Of a stretch of DNA of 5,771 bases, positions 1 to 5,771 are shown piece after piece. How positions within the stretch are numbered: position 1 is the first letter of the stretch; every line of letters begins with the position of its first letter. Position numbers and translations under genes: made by a program. The DNA is from an uncultured bacterium (GTDB lineage: Bacteria > Bacteroidota > Bacteroidia > Bacteroidales > Paludibacteraceae), in assembly GCA_947074225.1 (NCBI GenBank), contig CAMTOX010000137.1, positions 1 to 5,771 on the forward strand, read 5' to 3'. The notes under the pieces were generated by a model. That model searched no databases and had not been told where the DNA came from. It saw only the letters and a list, made by a program, of their open reading frames with translations.

Positions 1-53
1 GCATACGAGTTTTCTGAATGTGACTGGAGTTCAGACGTGTGCTCGTCCGATCT
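1..53 (+). other. Illumina TruSeq i7 adapter left on the contig end (not genomic)
   Basis: Bases 1-11 match the end of the P7 primer (GCATACGAGAT, with T instead of A at 10). Bases 12-19 read TTCTGAAT, the primer form of the 8-base index ATTCAGAA (D705 in the TruSeq HT set, from memory). Bases 20-53 match the Read 2 primer site ending in CTTCCGATCT, with one mismatch (G for T at 45). Order and spacing match the commercial adapter exactly, so chance is excluded. The stretch is an untrimmed artefact that marks the physical end of the contig and should be masked. Confidence 0.97.
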
Positions 54-101
54 TATGAAGATAATTATGGTAACCGTAAAAACTTCGTCAAAGTAAATTA
101 A
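54..101 (+). CDS. C-terminal tail of a truncated upstream gene (partial)
   Basis: Directly after the adapter an open frame runs 15 codons to TAA at 99-101, reading YEDNYGNRKNFVKVN. It ends 5 nt before the ATG of the AsmA-family gene, the spacing expected inside an operon, so it is probably the 3' end of a same-strand gene lost at the contig break. The fragment is too short to assign a family. A competing frame starts at ATG 55 and stops at 94-96 after 13 codons, but it is tiny and less convincing. If the first reading is right, the AsmA-family gene is probably co-transcribed with it and its promoter lies outside the window. Confidence 0.35.
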   Translation, partial: YEDNYGNRKNFVKVN

Positions 102-106
102 TACCT

Positions 107-3100
107 ATGAAAAAGACCCTTAAAATTGTTGCGTGGACTCTCTTATCGCTACTCATAGTGGTTGTTATTACCATTAGTGTGGTAACCTATGTGGTATTCA
201 CACCAGAACGGTTAACACCAATTGTTCAAAAAGAGGGAAGTAAATTACTTTCCTGCAGTAGCGAAATAGAACGTGTAGAGTTAACATTCTTCTCTACATT
301 CCCTAACTTCGGACTACGTATTGAGCAGGTACTTCTAATTAACCCCATGTTAGGAGCACCAAACGATACCTTGGCAGCAATTGAATACCTCACGGCAAGT
401 GTCGATTTAATGGCATATCTTAAAGAGGAACGAGTAGCATTAAATGAGTTTACTCTCTATAAGGCTTCGGTAAATCTTTATACTAATGCCCAAGGAGTAA
501 GCAATTTCAATATTATTCAGAGTAGCGATACCACAGAGAACGATACCACAACGACTTCGTCATTACCGGAATTTATAGACCTTAAACGGATAATATTTAA
601 ACAAGTACAAGGTAGTTACATTGACGAAACAGCAGGACTCAATGCTGCATTGGCAAATTTAGAAGGTACCATAGCTCTAAAGATGAATCCCTCCGATTGC
701 GATGCCGATATAAATTTGAAACTACAAACAGTGGATTTTTCTATGGCCGACTCCCTGCCACTTTATGTTCAAATGGCAGAAATTCAACTCGATGCTAAAG
801 CAAAACTTGCTGACAACCAATTGAATACTACTTTTAAATTAGGGGTAGACTCCTTGTTTCTTAAACAGGCCGATGCTGTTTATGTGGACAAAATGCCTCT
901 TAAATTGGTGGCAAATGCCAAAGCAAATTTAGACAACAAGGAGCTGCAAATTCAAGATACAAAACTTTCTTATGGCACCCTACAGCTCGATATTTTGGGT
1001 AATGTGGCTTCACAACACGAGCGTATCTATACTAACCTAATGCTTAAGAGTAATTCATGGAATATTCCATACCTTTTAACCTTAGTGCCGGCCGACTTTA
1101 CAGAACCTCTTCAGGGTATGGAGATTCAAGGAGAGGCTATGATAGAGGCAAAAGTGCAAGGGTACTACTCCGACTCGCTAATGCCACTTATTACAACACA
1201 ACTTATTCTGGAGAATGGAACTTTTGATGCCGACTTCCTACCTATATCGTTGACGAAACTCAATGCAAAACTCAATGCCGATATAGATATTAATAGCTCG
1301 GGAATCTCTAAGGTCAAGATTGAAGAACTTCAAGCTAAGACTCCAGAATCTACAATAGCAATAACCGGAACTATCGATGACCTCTTGGGTAAACAATACT
1401 GTAGCCTACAGCTCAATGGCGACCTATCTATGCATGAGGCAGAACTTTTCTTGCCGGACAGCATGGTCATGACTTTACAAGGTAGGACAGTAGGCAATTT
1501 AAAAGCACAATTTAAATTGGAGGACCTCACAGAGCTACGTTTGGAGAAGCTTAAGGCAAATGGTAACTTTACTTTTACCAATTTTGCCATGACTACAGAT
1601 AGTATGCAGGTGAATACTCCAGAGCTAAAATTGGCTTTAGAGATCCCTACACCTCAGAAGGTGTTGGCTTTTAAGCCATGCTTGCAAGCCACCATGACTA
1701 CTTCGGCTTTAGATGCTACTATGACCAATCTTGGACATGTGCAACTACAAAATGCCACCATAGATGCTGTTGTGAGCAATCCGTTGGACGAGAAACTGCC
1801 GCTCTCGGCTATAGCGACATTGAAAATGGAACATTTAAACGGTGAAATGGATACTTTAACAGCTGCTATTAATGGCTTAATGGCTAAAGTAACCTATTTG
1901 CCCGACCCTAAAGATAAGAACTTACAGGAGATAACCTTAAACTACTTTAGTCGTTCTATGACGGCTGCTATGGGTAAGATGGCATCGGTAGAAACCAAAG
2001 GATTGAAGATTGATGCCGACGCACTTTACAATAGCAATGAAACGGAATTACTCATGCAATGGAATCCAAAGCTTACGGTAGATTTAGTAGAAGGTGTGAT
2101 ACATACTGCCGAAATTCCTCTCGATTTATCCGTACCACGCATTAACTTTAACTTCTCGCCAGGATATGCCTATATTAACGATAGCCGTATTCTCTTAGGA
2201 AACTCAGACTTTAGCCTAATTGGAGAGGTGAGTAATTTAGACGAGTATGTACGCGGAACAGGATTACTCTTGGGCGAACTTCAGTTCGTGAGCCGTGTTA
2301 CCGATGTGAATCAAATCATGGAACTCATGAATGGTGTGGGTAGAACAGATAGCGTAGTACCGATGGAATCGGCTCAAGATAACCCCTTCATGGTTCCTAA
2401 AGGTATGGACATAGCTCTGGAAACAAAGATTGATAGAGCCTATGCCGGTAACGGAGAGTTTGACAATGTGGGAGGAAAAGTAACCATTCAAGATGGTATA
2501 TTAATTCTAGAACAGATGGGTTTCACCTCTAAAGCTGCCGAAATGCAACTCACTGCCATGTATAGAAGCGACAGAATGAACCACCTTTTTGCAGGAGTAG
2601 ACTTCCATTTGCTCAATATTGATGTGGCAGAACTAATAAACCTCATCCCAGATATCGATACCATTGTGCCTATGCTTAAAGCATTCGATGGTAAAGCTGA
2701 GTTCCATTTGGCTGCCGAAACCTATTTGAAGTCAAACTACGATATTAAGATGTCGACTCTTCGTGGGGCGGCAGCTATAGAAGGACAAAATCTTGTGCTC
2801 TTGGATAACGAAACTTTCTCGACCATCTCTAAATATATGATGTTTAATAAACAAACACGTAATAAGGTGGATACTATGAGCATTGAGATGACAGTGTTCC
2901 GTAACGAGGTAGATGTTTACCCATTCCTTATTGTGATGGATAAGTACCATGCCATCATTAGCGGGCGCCATAACCTGGACATGACTTTCGACTATAACCT
3001 TTCGGCTATATCGCCCATTCGCTTAGGATTGGAGGTAAAAGGAAATCCCGATAACTTGAAGTATAAGCTTACTAAGGCAGAGAATAAAACACTCTTTATG

Positions 3101-3193
3101 CCTGAAAAACGCAATGCCGTAGAAGCACAAACCATGCGACTGAAACAGATGATTAGCGACTCTTTAAAGGCGAATGTAAAAAAGAAGGAGTAG
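107..3193 (+). CDS. AsmA-family inner-membrane-anchored periplasmic protein
   Basis: The 1028-residue protein starts with a short basic stretch (MKKTLK) and one hydrophobic segment at residues 7-31, an uncleaved N-terminal anchor that leaves the rest in the periplasm. The motif VELTFFSTFPNFGLRIEQV (57-75) is typical of the AsmA N-terminal region. A Ser/Thr/Asp-rich linker follows at 139-152. The body is repetitive beta-strand sequence, and the AsmA C-terminal-type region covers roughly 780-990 (VTIQDGIL at 792, LRGAAAIEGQNL at 885-896). The tail is basic. AsmA, TamB and YhdP relatives form long beta-groove bridges that affect outer-membrane assembly and lipid transport; the exact substrate here is unknown. 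No Shine-Dalgarno site is visible, which is normal for Bacteroidetes. ATG 107 is chosen because it comes just before the membrane segment and follows the upstream stop by 5 nt. Length is normal for Bacteroidales homologues and the frame is intact. Confidence 0.9.
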   Translation: MKKTLKIVAWTLLSLLIVVVITISVVTYVVFTPERLTPIVQKEGSKLLSCSSEIERVELTFFSTFPNFGLRIEQVLLINPMLGAPNDTLAAIEYLTASVDLMAYLKEERVALNEFTLYKASVNLYTNAQGVSNFNIIQSSDTTENDTTTTSSLPEFIDLKRIIFKQVQGSYIDETAGLNAALANLEGTIALKMNPSDCDADINLKLQTVDFSMADSLPLYVQMAEIQLDAKAKLADNQLNTTFKLGVDSLFLKQADAVYVDKMPLKLVANAKANLDNKELQIQDTKLSYGTLQLDILGNVASQHERIYTNLMLKSNSWNIPYLLTLVPADFTEPLQGMEIQGEAMIEAKVQGYYSDSLMPLITTQLILENGTFDADFLPISLTKLNAKLNADIDINSSGISKVKIEELQAKTPESTIAITGTIDDLLGKQYCSLQLNGDLSMHEAELFLPDSMVMTLQGRTVGNLKAQFKLEDLTELRLEKLKANGNFTFTNFAMTTDSMQVNTPELKLALEIPTPQKVLAFKPCLQATMTTSALDATMTNLGHVQLQNATIDAVVSNPLDEKLPLSAIATLKMEHLNGEMDTLTAAINGLMAKVTYLPDPKDKNLQEITLNYFSRSMTAAMGKMASVETKGLKIDADALYNSNETELLMQWNPKLTVDLVEGVIHTAEIPLDLSVPRINFNFSPGYAYINDSRILLGNSDFSLIGEVSNLDEYVRGTGLLLGELQFVSRVTDVNQIMELMNGVGRTDSVVPMESAQDNPFMVPKGMDIALETKIDRAYAGNGEFDNVGGKVTIQDGILILEQMGFTSKAAEMQLTAMYRSDRMNHLFAGVDFHLLNIDVAELINLIPDIDTIVPMLKAFDGKAEFHLAAETYLKSNYDIKMSTLRGAAAIEGQNLVLLDNETFSTISKYMMFNKQTRNKVDTMSIEMTVFRNEVDVYPFLIVMDKYHAIISGRHNLDMTFDYNLSAISPIRLGLEVKGNPDNLKYKLTKAENKTLFMPEKRNAVEAQTMRLKQMISDSLKANVKKKE

Positions 3194-3268: not shown

Positions 3269-3313
3269 AAATAAAATGGGCAGATAGTGAATTACTATCC
3301 GCCCATTTTATTT
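3269..3313. terminator. Bidirectional intrinsic terminator between convergent genes
   Basis: Arms 3269-3281 and 3301-3313 pair over 13 bp (AAATAAAATGGGC with its complement). After one A/C mismatch the stem continues for 6 bp (3283-3288 with 3294-3299) and closes on a 5-nt loop. The outer stem is A/T-only and the inner part G/C-rich, so each strand ends in a U-rich tract. It lies 75 nt past the AsmA-family stop and 7 nt past the PIN gene stop, so it probably serves both convergent genes. Confidence 0.88.
3275..3286 (+). repeat. 12-bp direct repeat, left copy (flanks the STAS-PIN operon)
   Basis: AATGGGCAGATA here recurs in the same orientation at 4255-4266. The copies bracket the two minus-strand genes. 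This copy forms part of the terminator stem, which gives it a separate reason to exist. Roughly one chance 12-mer match is expected in a window this size, so a mobile-cassette reading is only weakly supported. Confidence 0.4.
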
Positions 3314-3320
3314 GCTGTAA

Positions 3321-3884
3321 CTATTGTTCCTCTGTTGGCTCTAAGAATCCACGATGAGCCGATAGAATGTCTACGCGGCTATCTTTGAAATCCAAATCGT
3401 TCGTCACCAAAATATACCCTTTACTCTCGCAAATATTCTCTATCAACTTATCGTTAAAATCTAATGAGTCTAACTTCAGCGACTTCTCAATATCTGCTTT
3501 AGAGATACTTTTAGTGTCTATGCCAAAGTGTGTTAGTATCACCTTGGCCAAATCCTGTATATGTTCCACACTCTCTTCGCCATAGGTAGAGTTTCTGAAA
3601 TTCTTAAAATAAGCATACTGAGGTAGCTCACGGCTGCTCTTGCTACGTTCGTTATAGGCGGTATAATCAATACGTAGAGCACGGTTAATAAATTCTGACA
3701 ACACACTGGAGTCTATCACCATATTCATTTTCTGCTCAAGCATATCGGCAAAAAGGTGTGAATAGTCGGTCACTGCCCAACCTGCCATAGTGGGGTAGTA
3801 AAGATAAAGCAGCACATTGGTATCGTAAAAGAAGGTCCTATCGGCAAGCTCTGGCAATGCATCTATGTAATATCGTTCTGCCAT
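3321..3884 (-). CDS. PIN-domain ribonuclease-like protein, second gene of the STAS-PIN operon
   Basis: This 187-residue protein has the ordered acidic motifs of a PIN nuclease. FFYDTNVLLYLY gives D21 at the end of the first strand, SSVLSEFINR gives E64, LDFNDKLI gives D142/D145, and LVTNDLDF gives N162-D163. Together these would form the Mg/Mn-binding RNase site, and all four positions are present. PIN proteins cleave single-stranded RNA, and the best-known are VapC toxins. This one is about 50 residues longer than a typical VapC, with extra sequence at about 72-140 between the second and third acidic motifs. Its ATG lies 3 nt after the stop of the STAS-like gene, so the two are almost certainly co-transcribed and translationally coupled. 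It ends 7 nt before a strong terminator. No VapB, PhdYefM or AbrB-type antitoxin is present; the upstream slot holds the STAS-like protein. Its RNA target is unknown. Confidence 0.87.
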   Translation of the reverse strand: MAERYYIDALPELADRTFFYDTNVLLYLYYPTMAGWAVTDYSHLFADMLEQKMNMVIDSSVLSEFINRALRIDYTAYNERSKSSRELPQYAYFKNFRNSTYGEESVEHIQDLAKVILTHFGIDTKSISKADIEKSLKLDSLDFNDKLIENICESKGYILVTNDLDFKDSRVDILSAHRGFLEPTEEQ

Positions 3885-3887
3885 GCT

Positions 3888-4235
3888 CTACTCCTCTATA
3901 ATGTTTGCAATATGATTGCGCATTACCTCCTCGTGTGCAAAATAGTGCGGGGCAAGCCCATGCACCTTATGCCACGTCATATAAAACTGGTTGTTAAGTC
4001 CCTTCACACTGAGCAGTGTCTCAACATACTCTGGCGGAAACTCCTTATACAACTTCCCTACGGCATGGTTCAGAAAGGCTGCAATAACCAATTCTACACC
4101 ATTAAAGGAGAGCACCACTGCATTGCCCCGTTTTAATGCCGGCTGCACCTGCTCGTACACCTTCATACCATCGGTTGCTCTAACGCAAAACTGACTCCCT
4201 ATCACCTCTTTTACCTCTATTACTAATGGTTCCAT
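3888..4235 (-). CDS. STAS-like domain protein (DUF4325 family), first gene of the STAS-PIN operon
   Basis: This 115-residue protein has no signal peptide or membrane segment and is probably cytosolic. The pattern RATDGMKVYEQVQPAL (19-34), then VVLSFNGVEL (40-49), then AAFLNHAVGKLY (52-63) fits the STAS-like DUF4325 family as recalled, where a strand ending in an F-x-GVE turn precedes a helix. Classical STAS proteins act as anti-anti-sigma factors or signalling switches; no biochemical role is known to me for DUF4325. The position usually Ser or Thr before the F-L/A helix appears to be Ala here (A52-A53), which would argue against phosphorylation, but this alignment is by eye. No helix-turn-helix or ribbon-helix-helix is visible, so it is not an obvious DNA-binding antitoxin. 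Being first in the operon and 3 nt from the PIN gene, it is probably a partner or regulator of the nuclease. ATG 4233-4235 is the only start that keeps the whole fold. Confidence 0.8.
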   Translation of the reverse strand: MEPLVIEVKEVIGSQFCVRATDGMKVYEQVQPALKRGNAVVLSFNGVELVIAAFLNHAVGKLYKEFPPEYVETLLSVKGLNNQFYMTWHKVHGLAPHYFAHEEVMRNHIANIIEE

Positions 4236-4254
4236 GGTATTTAATTTTCATTTT

Positions 4255-4266
4255 AATGGGCAGATA
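4255..4266 (+). repeat. 12-bp direct repeat, right copy (flanks the STAS-PIN operon)
   Basis: AATGGGCAGATA is identical to 3275-3286. It lies 19 bp upstream of the STAS-like start codon, probably within the operon leader. See the left copy for its limits. Confidence 0.4.
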
Positions 4267-4281
4267 CCTAATCATAGATTC

Positions 4282-4353
4282 CGGCAGCTACCTTTTCAAT
4301 TTCTATCTTTGCATATTTAATTTGTCAATACCTATATTGCAAAGATGCTGCCG
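4282..4353. promoter_or_regulatory. Nested inverted repeat upstream of the STAS-PIN operon, possible operator/promoter
   Basis: Outer arms CGGCAGC (4282-4288) and GCTGCCG (4347-4353) are perfect complements. Inner arms ATCTTTGCA (4305/4306 onward) and TGCAAAGAT (about 4338-4346) are also complementary. The left outer and inner arms are separated by about 17 nt while the right ones abut, so this is two dyads and not one hairpin. The inner arms contain Bacteroidetes -7-like sequences facing each other: TATCTTTG on + (4304-4311) and CATCTTTG on - (4347-4340), the latter one base off consensus. The minus-strand element would start transcription near 4333, giving a leader of about 100 nt before the STAS-like gene. 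No good -33 TTTG is seen for either, so the promoter call is tentative. Confidence 0.45.
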
Positions 4354-4429
4354 AAATGTTTATATCTGCATCTTTTTGCATTCATTAGTTCATGCTTTCT
4401 AAACAGAAACAAGCTATAGTGCCGAAGTC

Positions 4430-4460
4430 GTTGTGAGGCACAAAAAATAATATACCTTTG
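4430..4460 (+). promoter_or_regulatory. Bacteroidetes-type promoter of the msrC gene
   Basis: The -7 element TACCTTTG (4453-4460) matches TAnnTTTG exactly. A -33-like GTTG (4430-4433, three of four bases of TTTG) precedes it with a 19-nt spacer, the usual spacing for the primary sigma factor in Bacteroides. Transcription should start around 4466-4468, giving a leader of only about 20 nt before ATG 4486. Confidence 0.75.
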
Positions 4461-4470
4461 TGTCTCACAA
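4431..4470. promoter_or_regulatory. 14-bp dyad operator overlapping the msrC promoter
   Basis: TTGTGAGGCACAAA (4431-4444) and TTTGTGTCTCACAA (4457-4470) are inverted copies matching at 13 of 14 positions, the odd pair being G/T, with a 12-nt A+T-rich spacer. The left arm covers the -33 element and the right arm covers the end of the -7 element and the expected start site. That placement fits a dimeric or tetrameric repressor blocking RNA polymerase. Most of the left arm lies upstream of the start site, so an RNA hairpin is unlikely. The regulator cannot be named; a redox or nutritional sensor would fit the downstream gene. Confidence 0.7.
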
Positions 4471-4485
4471 TCTAAAACCTTTATT

Positions 4486-4974
4486 ATGAGTCATCAAGTT
4501 ATTATAGACCCCACAGCCGATAAGGCCTCTCAATATGAAGCATTATTACCACAAATTTCTTCTGTTATTGCCGACGAGAGCGATTGGGTGGCCATCTGGG
4601 CTAATACCGTGGCCATGCTTCACGATGCCTTTGGTTTCTTTTGGGTGGGTTTTTACAGAGTAGTAGAGACACAATTGGTGGTAGCTCCTTTTCAAGGAGC
4701 TGTTTGCTGCTCGCGCATTGATTATGGGCGGGGTGTTTGTGGCACTGCATGGAAAGAGCAGCACACCATCATTGTCCCCGATGTGGAACGCTTCCCAGGA
4801 CATATTGCATGCAGTAGCCTCTCGCGGTCGGAAATTGTAGTGCCATTATTTCATAAAGGCAACGTAGTTGCTGTTCTCGACATAGATAGCACCGAACTTA
4901 ACAGCTTCGACTCTACCGACAGCCTCTATCTGGAACAACTCATGCAGATATTGGCGCAAAAACCTCTACCTTAG
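4486..4974 (+). CDS. msrC: Free methionine-(R)-sulfoxide reductase (fRMsr), GAF domain
   Basis: This 162-residue cytosolic protein is a single GAF domain of the YebR/MsrC family, which reduces free methionine-(R)-sulfoxide back to methionine with electrons from thioredoxin. It has the family hallmarks: GFFWVGFYRV (50-59), APFQGAVCCSRI (67-78), GRGVCGTA (81-88), GHIACSS (105-111), SEIVVPL (115-121) and VLDIDS (130-135). Cys75, Cys85 and Cys109 are spaced by 10 and 24 residues, exactly as the three redox cysteines of characterised enzymes (Cys84/94/118 in E. coli), so the enzyme should be active. Glu116, Asp132 and Asp134 fall where the substrate-binding acids lie. An extra Cys74 sits next to Cys75. 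Length is normal for the family. The gene stands alone with its own promoter, and a dyad over that promoter suggests repression. ATG 4486 lies about 20 nt after the predicted transcription start. Confidence 0.93.
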   Translation: MSHQVIIDPTADKASQYEALLPQISSVIADESDWVAIWANTVAMLHDAFGFFWVGFYRVVETQLVVAPFQGAVCCSRIDYGRGVCGTAWKEQHTIIVPDVERFPGHIACSSLSRSEIVVPLFHKGNVVAVLDIDSTELNSFDSTDSLYLEQLMQILAQKPLP

Positions 4975-5066
4975 TCCGCTTCCCACAGAGGTACTTCATG
5001 CTTTTGAATCTCTATCAATGAATTTCTCGCTTACTGCTTCTATGTAACAAAGCGCCTATAAACAGC

Positions 5067-5121
5067 TATCAAAGTCGAACCAAATTCGGATCCTATATCC
5101 GACTTTGGTTCGACTTTGATA
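5067..5121. repeat. Long near-perfect hairpin downstream of msrC
   Basis: Arms 5067-5084 and 5104-5121 are perfect 18-bp complements (TATCAAAGTCGAACCAAA on the left). After one T/C mismatch, 5086-5091 (TCGGAT) pairs with 5097-5102 (ATCCGA) around a 5-nt loop, giving 24 bp in total. It begins 92 nt after the msrC stop and has no U-tract behind it, so it is not a textbook terminator, although it could stabilise the 3' end or slow polymerase. It looks more like an extragenic palindromic repeat. Confidence 0.8.
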
Positions 5122-5132
5122 CGACTTTGTTC
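5100..5132 (+). repeat. Three tandem 11-bp repeats (CGACTTTGnnn)
   Basis: CGACTTTGGTT (5100-5110), CGACTTTGATA (5111-5121) and CGACTTTGTTC (5122-5132) share their first eight bases in perfect 11-bp register, about one helical turn. The first two copies overlap the right arm of the hairpin; the left arm carries degenerate complements (CAAAGTCG at 5070-5077, CAAATTCG at 5081-5088). A 6-bp hairpin (TTCCCT 5130-5135 with AGGGAA 5142-5147) follows. The phasing would suit several protein molecules bound on one face of the DNA, or repeat expansion. Confidence 0.65.
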
Positions 5133-5211
5133 CCTCTTTGAAGGGAATGCAGAGTAAATGGAGATAGAGATTTTGTTTTGCGAATTCAACACCGAAAGCA
5201 AATGATTACTA

Positions 5212-5264
5212 GTCTCAAAACAGAAACAAAAGCTTCTGTTTAGACGTTGCGTACAAGGTCTAAA
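5212..5264. repeat. Overlapping, mutually exclusive inverted repeats
   Basis: AAACAGAA (5218-5225) pairs with TTCTGTTT (5234-5241), extended outward by GTCT (5212-5215) with AGAC (5242-5245). Alternatively TTTAGAC (5239-5245) pairs with GTCTAAA (5258-5264). The shared segment 5239-5245 cannot be in both stems. No gene follows to give this an attenuator role within the window. Confidence 0.5.
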
Positions 5265-5279
5265 AGTGTAATGCTTTTT

Positions 5280-5294
5280 CTCTCAGAAAGAGAG
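5280..5294. repeat. Small hairpin (CTCTC/GAGAG)
   Basis: CTCTC (5280-5284) pairs with GAGAG (5290-5294) around loop AGAAA. It is short on its own and listed as part of the palindrome cluster. Confidence 0.4.
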
Positions 5295-5304
5295 CTCCTG
5301 AATA

Positions 5305-5404
5305 ACCGTGGGTAAATGGAGCAATGGCGGAATGTAGCCCACGGTAAAGGGAATAGGTAGTAAGTGCGCCTGAAGGGTGCTGTAAACATGCGTTCAGTAC
5401 CTAT
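5305..5404. repeat. REP-like palindrome pair
   Basis: ACCGTGGG (5305-5312) is the perfect complement of CCCACGGT (5338-5345), and both copies are followed by TAAA. Eight bases on, ATAGGTA (5353-5359) pairs with TACCTAT (5398-5404), enclosing GCGCC (5366-5370) with GGTGC (5376-5380, one G/T pair) around TGAAG. Modules built on CCGTGGG...CCCACGG and GCGCCnTGAAGGGNGC resemble extragenic palindromes I recall from between genes in Bacteroidetes; that comparison is from memory. No coding frame explains the symmetry. Confidence 0.55.
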
Positions 5405-5450
5405 CTACTCCTGAGAAATAGCTTTCTACCATCTGTTGAACTTCTTTTCC

Positions 5451-5519
5451 CTCTTTTTCTTTCGCCTCAAGCCGGCTGGGCTTTCCCTTTTTGACACTCC
5501 AAAAAGGGAAGAAAAAGAG
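5451..5519. repeat. Branched hairpin (three-way-junction-like)
   Basis: The closing stem is CTCTTTTTC (5451-5459) with GAAAAAGAG (5511-5519). Inside it, AAGCC (5469-5473) pairs with GGCTT (5479-5483), and TTCCCTTTTTG (5483-5493) pairs perfectly over 11 bp with CAAAAAGGGAA (5500-5510) around a 6-nt loop. Together they fold into a compact two-armed element. As the left arms are pyrimidine-rich, part of the match could reflect simple composition, but the 11-bp stem contains a G/C core. Confidence 0.6.
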
Positions 5520-5522
5520 TCA

Positions 5523-5684
5523 CCGCTGTAGTAAATCGGCTTCATCGTACAGAGGTAAATCGCTATCCCAACTAAACTCGCGTCGCGTCGCACTACTATT
5601 GATACCATTTCTACACGCTCATACAAAGTTGGGATGGCCGCTCTTACCTCTTCCCGATGTTAACCAGACGATTTACTAAGGCGG
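5523..5684. ncRNA. Extended imperfect hairpin, candidate structured RNA or palindromic element
   Basis: Five collinear stems nest in register: 5523-5526 with 5681-5684 (4 bp), 5529-5538 with 5669-5678 (10 bp, TAGTAAATCG), 5543-5547 with 5655-5659 (5 bp), 5551-5558 with 5644-5651 (8 bp, AGAGGTAA) and 5565-5573 with 5627-5635 (9 bp, ATCCCAACT). These 36 pairs are separated by small internal loops, mostly near-symmetric (2/2, 4/9, 3/3, 6/8). The 53-nt cap contains CGCGT twice in tandem. GTAAATCG occurs twice in the left arm (5531-5538 and 5555-5562), offering an alternative partner for CGATTTAC. It directly follows the branched hairpin, so both may be one element. The strand of any transcript is unknown, and no known RNA family was recognised. 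A MITE-like palindrome is the main alternative. Confidence 0.45.
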
Positions 5685-5771
5685 AGCCGGGTTATTGAGA
5701 TGCACGTCTGAGAAGAGGATTTTTGTTTTGTGCGATTTGAATATTTCATATATCAATTGCAAATAGGTGAT

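What the first reader, a model, noticed from the sequence alone, without database searches (positions are those of the whole stretch)
3321..4235. STAS-like (DUF4325) / PIN nuclease operon as a candidate undescribed two-component system
The sequence shows a PIN-domain protein with a full set of acidic residues (D21, E64, D145, D163), encoded 3 nt behind a small STAS-like protein, with its own terminator. PIN toxins normally follow a DNA-binding antitoxin such as VapB; here a STAS-fold protein without an obvious DNA-binding motif takes that place. STAS proteins elsewhere act by partner switching, so the pair could be a nuclease held or triggered by a signalling switch: an atypical toxin-antitoxin, a defence module or a stress RNase. 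The functional link is inferred only from operon structure.
Basis: partly seen in the sequence, partly recalled or inferred. Interest (0 to 1): 0.7.

Follow-up and report, generated by a model that had tools for sequence, protein, structure and literature searches.

The report
Kinase-less STAS antitoxin with PIN nuclease
Two neighbouring bacterial genes encode a predicted RNA-cutting toxin and a small protein that likely holds it in check; both are relatives of the recently described VapKSC anti-phage system, but here no switch kinase was found and the residue it would phosphorylate is an alanine, so the toxin is likely released in some other way.

Summary
In detail: a PIN gene (3321-3884, minus) lies 3 nt behind a DUF4325 STAS-like gene (3888-4235), with a 20-bp hairpin after it. 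It is not undescribed. PDB sequence search hits 9z7o, the Escherichia VapS-VapC complex; a 2026 EMBO J paper (PMC13373217) describes VapKSC, in which kinase VapK is proposed to phosphorylate the STAS antitoxin VapS on S48 and so free the nuclease VapC. I recovered the three-gene operon in many phyla. The window is an odd offshoot. No vapK lies beside the pair, in the rest of its 67%-complete genome, or in six related genomes, and VapS has Ala52 at the S48 position. All 64 surveyed VapS rows with a VapK on the fetched DNA have Ser or Thr there; of eight kinase-less loci of the branch five have Ala and three Thr. VapC acids are intact and both genes look conserved by selection. Best reading: the phospho-switch has been dismantled and the pair works as a plain STAS-type antitoxin plus VapC, likely released when VapS is lost. 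Neutralisation, release and toxicity are inferred; my fused model gave no confident interface. New variant of a known kind.

The parts
3888..4235 (-). vapS-like gene, STAS-like antitoxin (DUF4325), 115 aa
4080..4082 (-). codon of VapS Ala52 (GCA), at the place of the Ser/Thr thought to be phosphorylated (Escherichia VapS S48)
   Evidence: alignment (A52 opposite the S of ASPFF); survey of this column
3321..3884 (-). vapC-like gene, PIN nuclease (predicted toxin), 187 aa, D21/E64/D145/D163 present
3885..3887 (-). 3-nt spacer (AGC) between the vapS stop TAG and the vapC start ATG, in frame
3269..3313 (-). 20-bp hairpin with T-rich tail after vapC, terminator-like, shared with the convergent gene
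   Evidence: fold -27.4 kcal/mol, z -9.1; not listed by the simple terminator scan
4236..4485 (.). intergenic stretch where vapK would lie in the three-gene operon; no kinase gene, bounded by a divergent GAF gene
   Evidence: ORF list; tblastn with the VapK ORFs of the fetched loci gives no match to the window at E 1e-3

Best explanation
The window carries a VapS-VapC pair, relatives of the VapKSC anti-phage toxin-antitoxin system, but no VapK kinase was found in its genome and its VapS has alanine at the residue that the kinase is thought to phosphorylate, so VapS likely neutralises the VapC nuclease without any phospho-switch. Shown by sequence: the pair, its kinship to the solved Escherichia VapS-VapC complex, intact VapC acids, no vapK at the locus, in the 67%-complete genome or in six related genomes, and Ala52 at the S48 position. 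Inferred: that VapS binds and blocks VapC here as in Escherichia, that VapC is a toxic RNase, and that VapC is set free when VapS is no longer made or is degraded, as in ordinary type II toxin-antitoxin pairs, instead of by DNA-damage-triggered phosphorylation (itself the published model, not shown directly for VapS).
For: VapS and VapC each hit 9z7o by sequence. A VapS-like gene is upstream of the PIN gene in 44 of 45 loci. A kinase gene is on the fetched DNA of 36 of 38 of those loci outside the window's branch (misses: L023, cut by the contig edge; L045, no VapS either) and of 0 of 7 inside it (L002-L008) (gene order). Whole-genome search with the kinase profile at E <= 1e-3: no VapK in G000 (its one match, E 8e-4, is the ATPase part of a 1147-aa frame) nor in G594-G599 (0 of 6), while both controls, G401 and G191, give E 1.0e-131 and 1.2e-130. 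The S48 column is Ser or Thr in 64 of 64 VapS rows with a VapK on the fetched DNA and Ala in 5 of the 8 kinase-less loci of the branch (window, L002-L005). [quoted passage not shown] Acids D21, E64, D145, D163 each 8 of 8 kinase-less. Both genes stay open while most four-fold sites have changed, e.g. L006/L008 VapC 79% identical with 30 of 46 four-fold sites changed. VapS and VapC distances agree within the branch (Mantel r 0.84, 8 loci).
Against: The fused VapS-VapC model has pTM 0.63 with the joint disordered, so no interface was predicted. Three of the eight kinase-less loci (L006-L008) keep Thr, and two further VapS rows without a VapK nearby (L096, L100, outside the branch) keep Ser, so loss of the kinase need not mean loss of the site. 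The Ala rows come from one or two events on the tree, not many, so the Fisher p of 2.3e-6 overstates the case. G000 is only 67.5% complete, the completeness of G594-G599 is not told, and L004's genome was not held. L005 begins only 169 bases upstream of its vapS, and L004's upstream DNA is partly masked, so those loci alone could not exclude a vapK (L005's genome G596 has none). Release by VapS loss has no direct support here.
Confidence: 0.62

Rival explanations
1. Domesticated RNase: in this branch VapC is a chromosomal housekeeping or stress ribonuclease and VapS its standing inhibitor or chaperone, with no toxin-antitoxin or defence role.
For: Kinase-less loci sit between ordinary-looking chromosomal genes with shared order within sub-branches (L003-L005 near a LytTR-type regulator and an ABC transporter; L006-L008 near an HD-domain gene and an ABC-F gene; genes named by eye). 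None of the 8 has a restriction, BREX or Hma-like gene nearby (7 loci by the script, the window by its Pfam hits), against 20 of 66 kinase-bearing loci.
Against: 0 of 8 against 20 of 66 is not significant (p 0.10), and less DNA was held for the kinase-less loci (mean 8.9 kb for 7 loci against 11.5 kb; the window is 5.8 kb). The pair is rare and patchy: 3 of 200 genomes of the window's own family match the PIN profile, counting the window's genome and one weak partial match, unlike a housekeeping gene.
Confidence: 0.2
2. Trans-acting switch: another kinase of the cell phosphorylates VapS at a different residue, so the module is still signal-gated.
For: Thr is kept in L006-L008. In L002 and L004 the gene just upstream on the same strand looks like a hybrid histidine kinase or a piece of one (read by eye).
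Against: Ala52 cannot take a phosphate at the known place; no VapK-like protein was found in 7 genomes; ordinary histidine kinases phosphorylate His and Asp, not Ser/Thr (general knowledge). Residues common in 37 kinase-bearing VapS rows are mostly changed in the 9 rows of the branch (P0034 of unknown context included): the Thr before the site 36 of 37 against 0 of 9, Lys at window position 96 36 of 37 against 0 of 9, Gly13 37 of 37 against 1 of 9 (the window keeps it), as expected if a kinase-facing surface is no longer needed.
Confidence: 0.1
3. Decaying remnant: vapK was deleted and the two leftover genes are on their way out.
For: Such losses seem to occur: in L100 only an 18-residue match to the start of VapK remains upstream of an open vapS-vapC, and in L096 no VapK and no VapC is found on the fetched DNA (short contig).
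Against: In the window's branch both genes are open in 8 of 8 loci with the acids kept, and most four-fold sites have changed while protein identity stays well above them: old and conserved, not decaying.
Confidence: 0.07

Closest known systems
VapKSC (Chambers et al. 2026, EMBO J, PMC13373217; PDB 9z7o)
   Same: VapS-like STAS protein with a C-terminal tail directly upstream of a VapC-like PIN nuclease; sequence similarity of both to the solved Escherichia complex; catalytic acids kept.
   Different: No VapK found at the locus or in the genome; Ala52 in place of S48.
VapBC type II toxin-antitoxin
   Same: Small upstream antitoxin-like gene plus a VapC-fold PIN protein; likely use as a two-gene toxin-antitoxin pair.
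   Different: The upstream protein is a STAS-like DUF4325 protein without a recognised DNA-binding domain.
CapK-CapS regulators (same paper)
   Same: CapS is also a STAS-domain partner of a GHKL kinase.
   Different: CapS is a DNA-binding repressor with a winged helix-turn-helix domain (paper, abstract and section 14); this VapS is 115 aa with only the STAS-like domain recognised, and no kinase was found.
RsbV-RsbW / SpoIIAA-SpoIIAB partner switching
   Different: No kinase found, no phospho-acceptor at the known place, and the partner is a PIN protein instead of a sigma factor.

Membership tests
VapKSC | VapC-like PIN nuclease with the catalytic acids (D28 in Escherichia) | tested here: met
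   profile match to 9z7o_C with D21 opposite D28; acids 8 of 8 in the branch
VapKSC | VapS: STAS domain plus short C-terminal region, directly upstream of vapC | tested here: met
   9z7o_A match, window alone E 1.4e-7 over residues 6-77, profile over nearly the whole chain E 1.1e-22; PF14213; 3-nt spacing
VapKSC | VapK, GHKL kinase gene in the operon | tested here: not met
   no VapK in the window, in G000 (67.5% complete) or in 6 related genomes
VapKSC | Ser or Thr at the VapS S48 position | tested here: not met
   Ala52
VapKSC | VapS neutralises VapC; operon protects against phage | not testable with these tools
   bench assays needed; fused model pTM 0.63 gives no interface
VapBC type II TA | VapC-fold PIN toxin | tested here: met
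VapBC type II TA | VapB antitoxin with a DNA-binding domain | tested here: not met
   only DUF4325 in Pfam, a PHROG of unknown function and nothing in PADLOC or NCBIfam for the upstream protein
CapKS regulator | STAS protein with a winged helix-turn-helix DNA-binding part plus CapK | tested here: not met
   115-aa protein with DUF4325 only; no kinase found
Partner-switching anti-sigma module | GHKL kinase, phospho-acceptor STAS protein and a sigma factor | tested here: not met
   no kinase found, Ala at the site, PIN protein in place of a sigma factor

The most novel reading that the evidence does not exclude
A kinase-gated anti-phage toxin-antitoxin switch has been taken apart in evolution: vapK is gone, the phospho-acceptor of VapS has become alanine, and the remaining STAS protein serves as a stand-alone, phosphorylation-independent antitoxin of VapC under a new trigger. 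It would be a phospho-dead STAS antitoxin kept by selection, a natural S48A, in a lineage that a search seeded on the kinase cannot see; none of my paper searches shows one described before.
Probability: 0.5. Interest if true: 0.62.

Novelty: new variant of a known kind. Interest (0 to 1): 0.5.

Why it matters
The published model rests on a Ser/Thr of VapS said to be absolutely conserved; this window breaks that rule together with the absence of the kinase, which is an evolutionary counter-test of the model. It suggests how a signal-gated immune toxin can turn into a plain toxin-antitoxin pair, and the relatives show possible steps: kinase with Ser/Thr, no kinase with Thr (L006-L008), no kinase with Ala (window, L002-L005). 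It also means that surveys seeded on the kinase miss members. If VapS alone controls VapC here, the question of what releases VapC without a kinase becomes directly testable.

Tried and rejected
Undescribed system: rejected after the PDB sequence search and the EMBO J 2026 paper. Paper searches: DUF4325 or PIN domain (548 papers hold one of them, 20 listed), DUF4325, STAS-like domain with PIN domain, partner-switching with toxin, STAS and nuclease, VapS with VapC (of which 17 listed), three of STAS domain, VapC, phage, restriction-modification (20 listed), VapKSC, STAS domain with antitoxin and PIN. No title or abstract start listed describes a kinase-less pair. Only PMC13373217 was opened: abstract and outline, sections 13 and 14 whole, passages by two word searches ('Bacteroid' and 'orphan' gave 0). 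The rest were seen only in listings. The library holds no preprints. In that paper VapS phosphorylation by VapK is inferred (phosphomimic, mutants, a predicted complex); VapK was insoluble and was not assayed.

Contact with defence genes: counted by similarity to 11 seed proteins, 9 of them checked (the two from L110 were not scanned, but L110's genes cluster with the checked HsdR and HsdS). 20 of 66 kinase-bearing loci and 0 of 8 kinase-less ones (the window itself by its Pfam hits); not significant (p 0.10). L009 and L024 count through one seed each (a helicase, a methylase) and may be loose. L100, which has lost vapK, has HsdM and HsdS but falls in neither group. RhuM alone was not counted. 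HsdM-like genes lie in 8 of 27 loci of the phylum survey against 1.14 expected, but 5 of the 8 come from one genus (outside it 3 of 13 against 0.26); observed is by one seed, expected by Pfam counts. Of 78 loci in that script 66 hold a kinase hit; 64 of these have a VapS row for the S48 column. L023 was dropped from that column (fragment); P0034 and the PDB VapS were left out of its counts.

Trees: in the VapC tree the tool needs 6 changes for the kinase-less label, because it counts 78 other rows, among them metagenome proteins of unseen context, as outside the group.

Limits: the profiles A2 (VapK) and A3 (VapS) were built from these same loci; the scan used two short peptide patterns. I had no Escherichia VapK sequence, so VapK is named from gene order and a GHKL-type C-terminal half: HATPase_c is under Pfam's cut-off in 3 of 4 proteins scanned and absent in the fourth; motif residues are invariant in 24 rows. 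Residue 48 of Escherichia VapS was placed by alignment (chain position 66, counting back the expression tag), which fits the paper's numbering but is my inference.

Full report
What is there. On the minus strand a 115-aa STAS-like gene (3888-4235, PF14213 E 9.1e-15) is followed after 3 nt by a 187-aa PIN gene (3321-3884, PF01850 E 1.9e-4, just under cut-off). A 20-bp hairpin closes the unit (z -9.1). A divergent GAF gene (4486-4974) bounds it upstream, and an AsmA-like gene (107-3193) runs towards it from the other side. PADLOC and NCBIfam give no convincing match for either protein (a VapC model at E 0.096, far under its cut-off).

Relatives. The PIN search returned 32 proteins at E <= 1e-3, the window's own included. 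A scan of the species-genome collection with two peptide patterns of their profile gave 45 loci, in Bacteroidota, Spirochaetota, Fibrobacterota, Campylobacterota, Planctomycetota, Nitrospirota, Pseudomonadota, Methanosarcinales and others (lineages also). In 44 of 45 the STAS-like gene lies directly upstream. In 36 of 38 loci outside the window's branch a third gene lies further upstream: about 286 aa, with the E...N...H and DxGxG residues of GHKL ATPases invariant in 24 aligned rows. In a survey of 395 genomes of the phylum, 26 (the window's own included) have a VapS-type hit. Of the 27 places in the other genomes, all of which I extended, 24 have the kinase, counting one kinase-STAS fusion, and 18 a recognised PIN gene, with two more (L097, L106) that I read as PIN by eye.

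Identity. A profile of the STAS proteins hits PDB chain 9z7o_A, Escherichia VapS (E 1.1e-22), and the PIN profile hits 9z7o_C, Escherichia VapC (E 1.9e-9). The entry belongs to Chambers et al., EMBO J 2026 (PMC13373217; abstract, sections 13 and 14 and passages read). They describe VapKSC: VapS binds VapC in a 2:2 complex and neutralises it; a phosphomimic at S48 fails to; S48A, VapC D28A or VapK F54A abolish about 2 logs of protection against phage Bas42. Their model is that ssDNA activates VapK, which phosphorylates VapS; VapK itself could not be assayed. They found 289 operons, 36% of them within 10 kb of other immune genes, by a search that started from CapK-like kinases.

What is different here. 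(1) No kinase. The window has none; its genome has only weak matches in long frames (E 8e-4 in 1147 aa, E 0.028 in 504 aa); six genomes of the related loci L002, L003 and L005-L008 have none at E <= 1e-3, while two control genomes give E 1.0e-131 and 1.2e-130. L004's genome was not held; no VapK was detected on its 1.5 kb of partly masked upstream DNA. (2) No phospho-acceptor. In the window VapS, Ala52 stands opposite S48 of Escherichia VapS, at the first residue of a predicted helix. Of 64 VapS rows with a VapK on the fetched DNA, 38 have Ser and 26 Thr. Of 11 without, 5 have Ala (window, L002-L005), 3 Thr (L006-L008), 1 Asp (L094, an orphan VapS) and 2 Ser (L096, L100). Of the best 120 of 238 VapS relatives (the window's own among them), 99 have Thr, 14 Ser and 7 Ala; their gene contexts were not seen. 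(3) Other residues common in 37 kinase-bearing VapS rows are changed in all 9 rows of the branch (P0034 included): the Thr before the site, Glu, Lys, Lys and Lys at window positions 68, 72, 89 and 96; Gly13 is changed in 8 of 9 but kept in the window.

History. In the VapC tree (86 rows) the eight kinase-less loci fall inside one 22-row set (100/95) whose other rows are proteins of unseen context. In the VapS tree they fall in one 18-row set (97/88), and Ala needs two changes, or one if only well-supported branches are trusted. So the loss looks old, and the Ala state arose once or twice; the Fisher p of 2.3e-6 ignores this kinship. L100 looks like a separate loss: only an 18-residue match to the start of VapK remains, and Ser is kept.

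Is it alive. VapC acids D21, E64, D145 and D163 are present in 8 of 8 kinase-less loci. Most four-fold sites have changed while proteins stay similar, e.g. L006/L008: VapC 79% and VapS 59% identical with 30 of 46 and 16 of 22 four-fold sites changed; synonymous distances are saturated, so no dN/dS is claimed. VapS evolves faster than VapC (mean identity 44% against 58%) and the two distance matrices agree (Mantel r 0.84, 8 loci; 0.80 over 64 loci). This is what a co-inherited, selected pair looks like.

How it likely works. By kinship to the solved complex, VapS would sit on VapC with its C-terminal tail near the active site and block it. In Escherichia, S48 is buried in that interface (paper, section 13), so Ala there should be compatible with binding; this is inference. 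Without a kinase and an acceptor the published trigger cannot operate. The simplest remaining release is loss of VapS when its synthesis stops or it is degraded. Rivals are a domesticated RNase with a standing inhibitor and a different kinase acting on another residue. My fused-chain model (mean pLDDT 91.5, pTM 0.63) does not settle the interface.

Context. Kinase-bearing loci often sit among methylase-based defence genes: 20 of 66 have a restriction, BREX or Hma-like gene on the fetched DNA (9 of 11 seeds checked), not far from the paper's 36%. Examples are L110, in the window's own family by the genome tool (HsdS, an unclassified 681-aa gene, VapK-VapS-VapC, HsdR); L102 (type III Mod and Res); L089 (HmaA and HmaB); L085 (PglX). 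None of the 8 kinase-less loci has one (7, the window), but less DNA was held for them and the difference is not significant.

Verdict. Observation confirmed; interpretation half right; system known; variant new. It likely works like a two-gene toxin-antitoxin pair, but it is not filed as VapKSC because two defining features were tested and not met.

Noticed in passing
window 1-54: The contig end looks like an Illumina TruSeq adapter read-through (recognised from memory), so the first bases are probably an assembly artefact.
   Followed up: no
window 4486-4974 (+): GAF-domain gene divergent from vapS (PF01590 E 3.6e-11), perhaps a free-methionine-sulfoxide reductase (recalled, not tested).
   Followed up: no
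window 4975-5771: Stretch without a clear gene, with short repeated motifs (GACTTTGGTTCGACTTTGATACGACTTTG) seen by eye.
   Followed up: no
L110:175-9469: VapK-VapS-VapC between an HsdS-like and an HsdR-like gene, i.e. inside a type I restriction operon.
   Followed up: partly
L089:3228-12953 and L085:2548-8040: VapKSC between HmaA and HmaB genes (L089) and directly behind a PglX (BREX) gene (L085; its VapK ORF is shorter, 244 aa).
   Followed up: partly
L109:8038-9324: A single 428-aa frame matches both the kinase (E 1.5e-18) and the VapS profile (E 4.9e-6), next to a RhuM gene: a likely VapK-VapS fusion.
   Followed up: no
L112:5863-7655 (Streptococcus phage Javan172): Prophage next to its integrase carries VapK, VapS and a 176-aa VapC frame (7125-7655, E 1.9e-17) that the record does not annotate.
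   Followed up: partly
L081:4066-5912 (Deinococcus gobiensis plasmid P5): Plasmid-borne trio annotated ATP-binding, STAS-like and PIN proteins.
   Followed up: partly
L114:3822-5525 (IMG/VR contig): Viral-collection contig with a VapC relative and a VapK match upstream; VapS there not checked.
   Followed up: no
L010 and L042 (Methanosarcinales MAGs): VapKSC-like trios in archaeal MAGs; binning errors not excluded.
   Followed up: no
L100:1624-2697 (minus): Apparent separate loss of vapK: only an 18-residue match to the start of VapK is left before open vapS (Ser kept) and vapC, beside HsdM and HsdS genes.
   Followed up: partly
L094:8976-9443 (minus): Orphan VapS without VapK or VapC nearby, with Asp at the S48 position, as if permanently phosphomimetic.
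   Followed up: no
L002:2-4553 and L004:575-1426: The gene just upstream of kinase-less vapS on the same strand looks like a hybrid histidine kinase or a piece of one (by eye; L004 partly masked).
   Followed up: no
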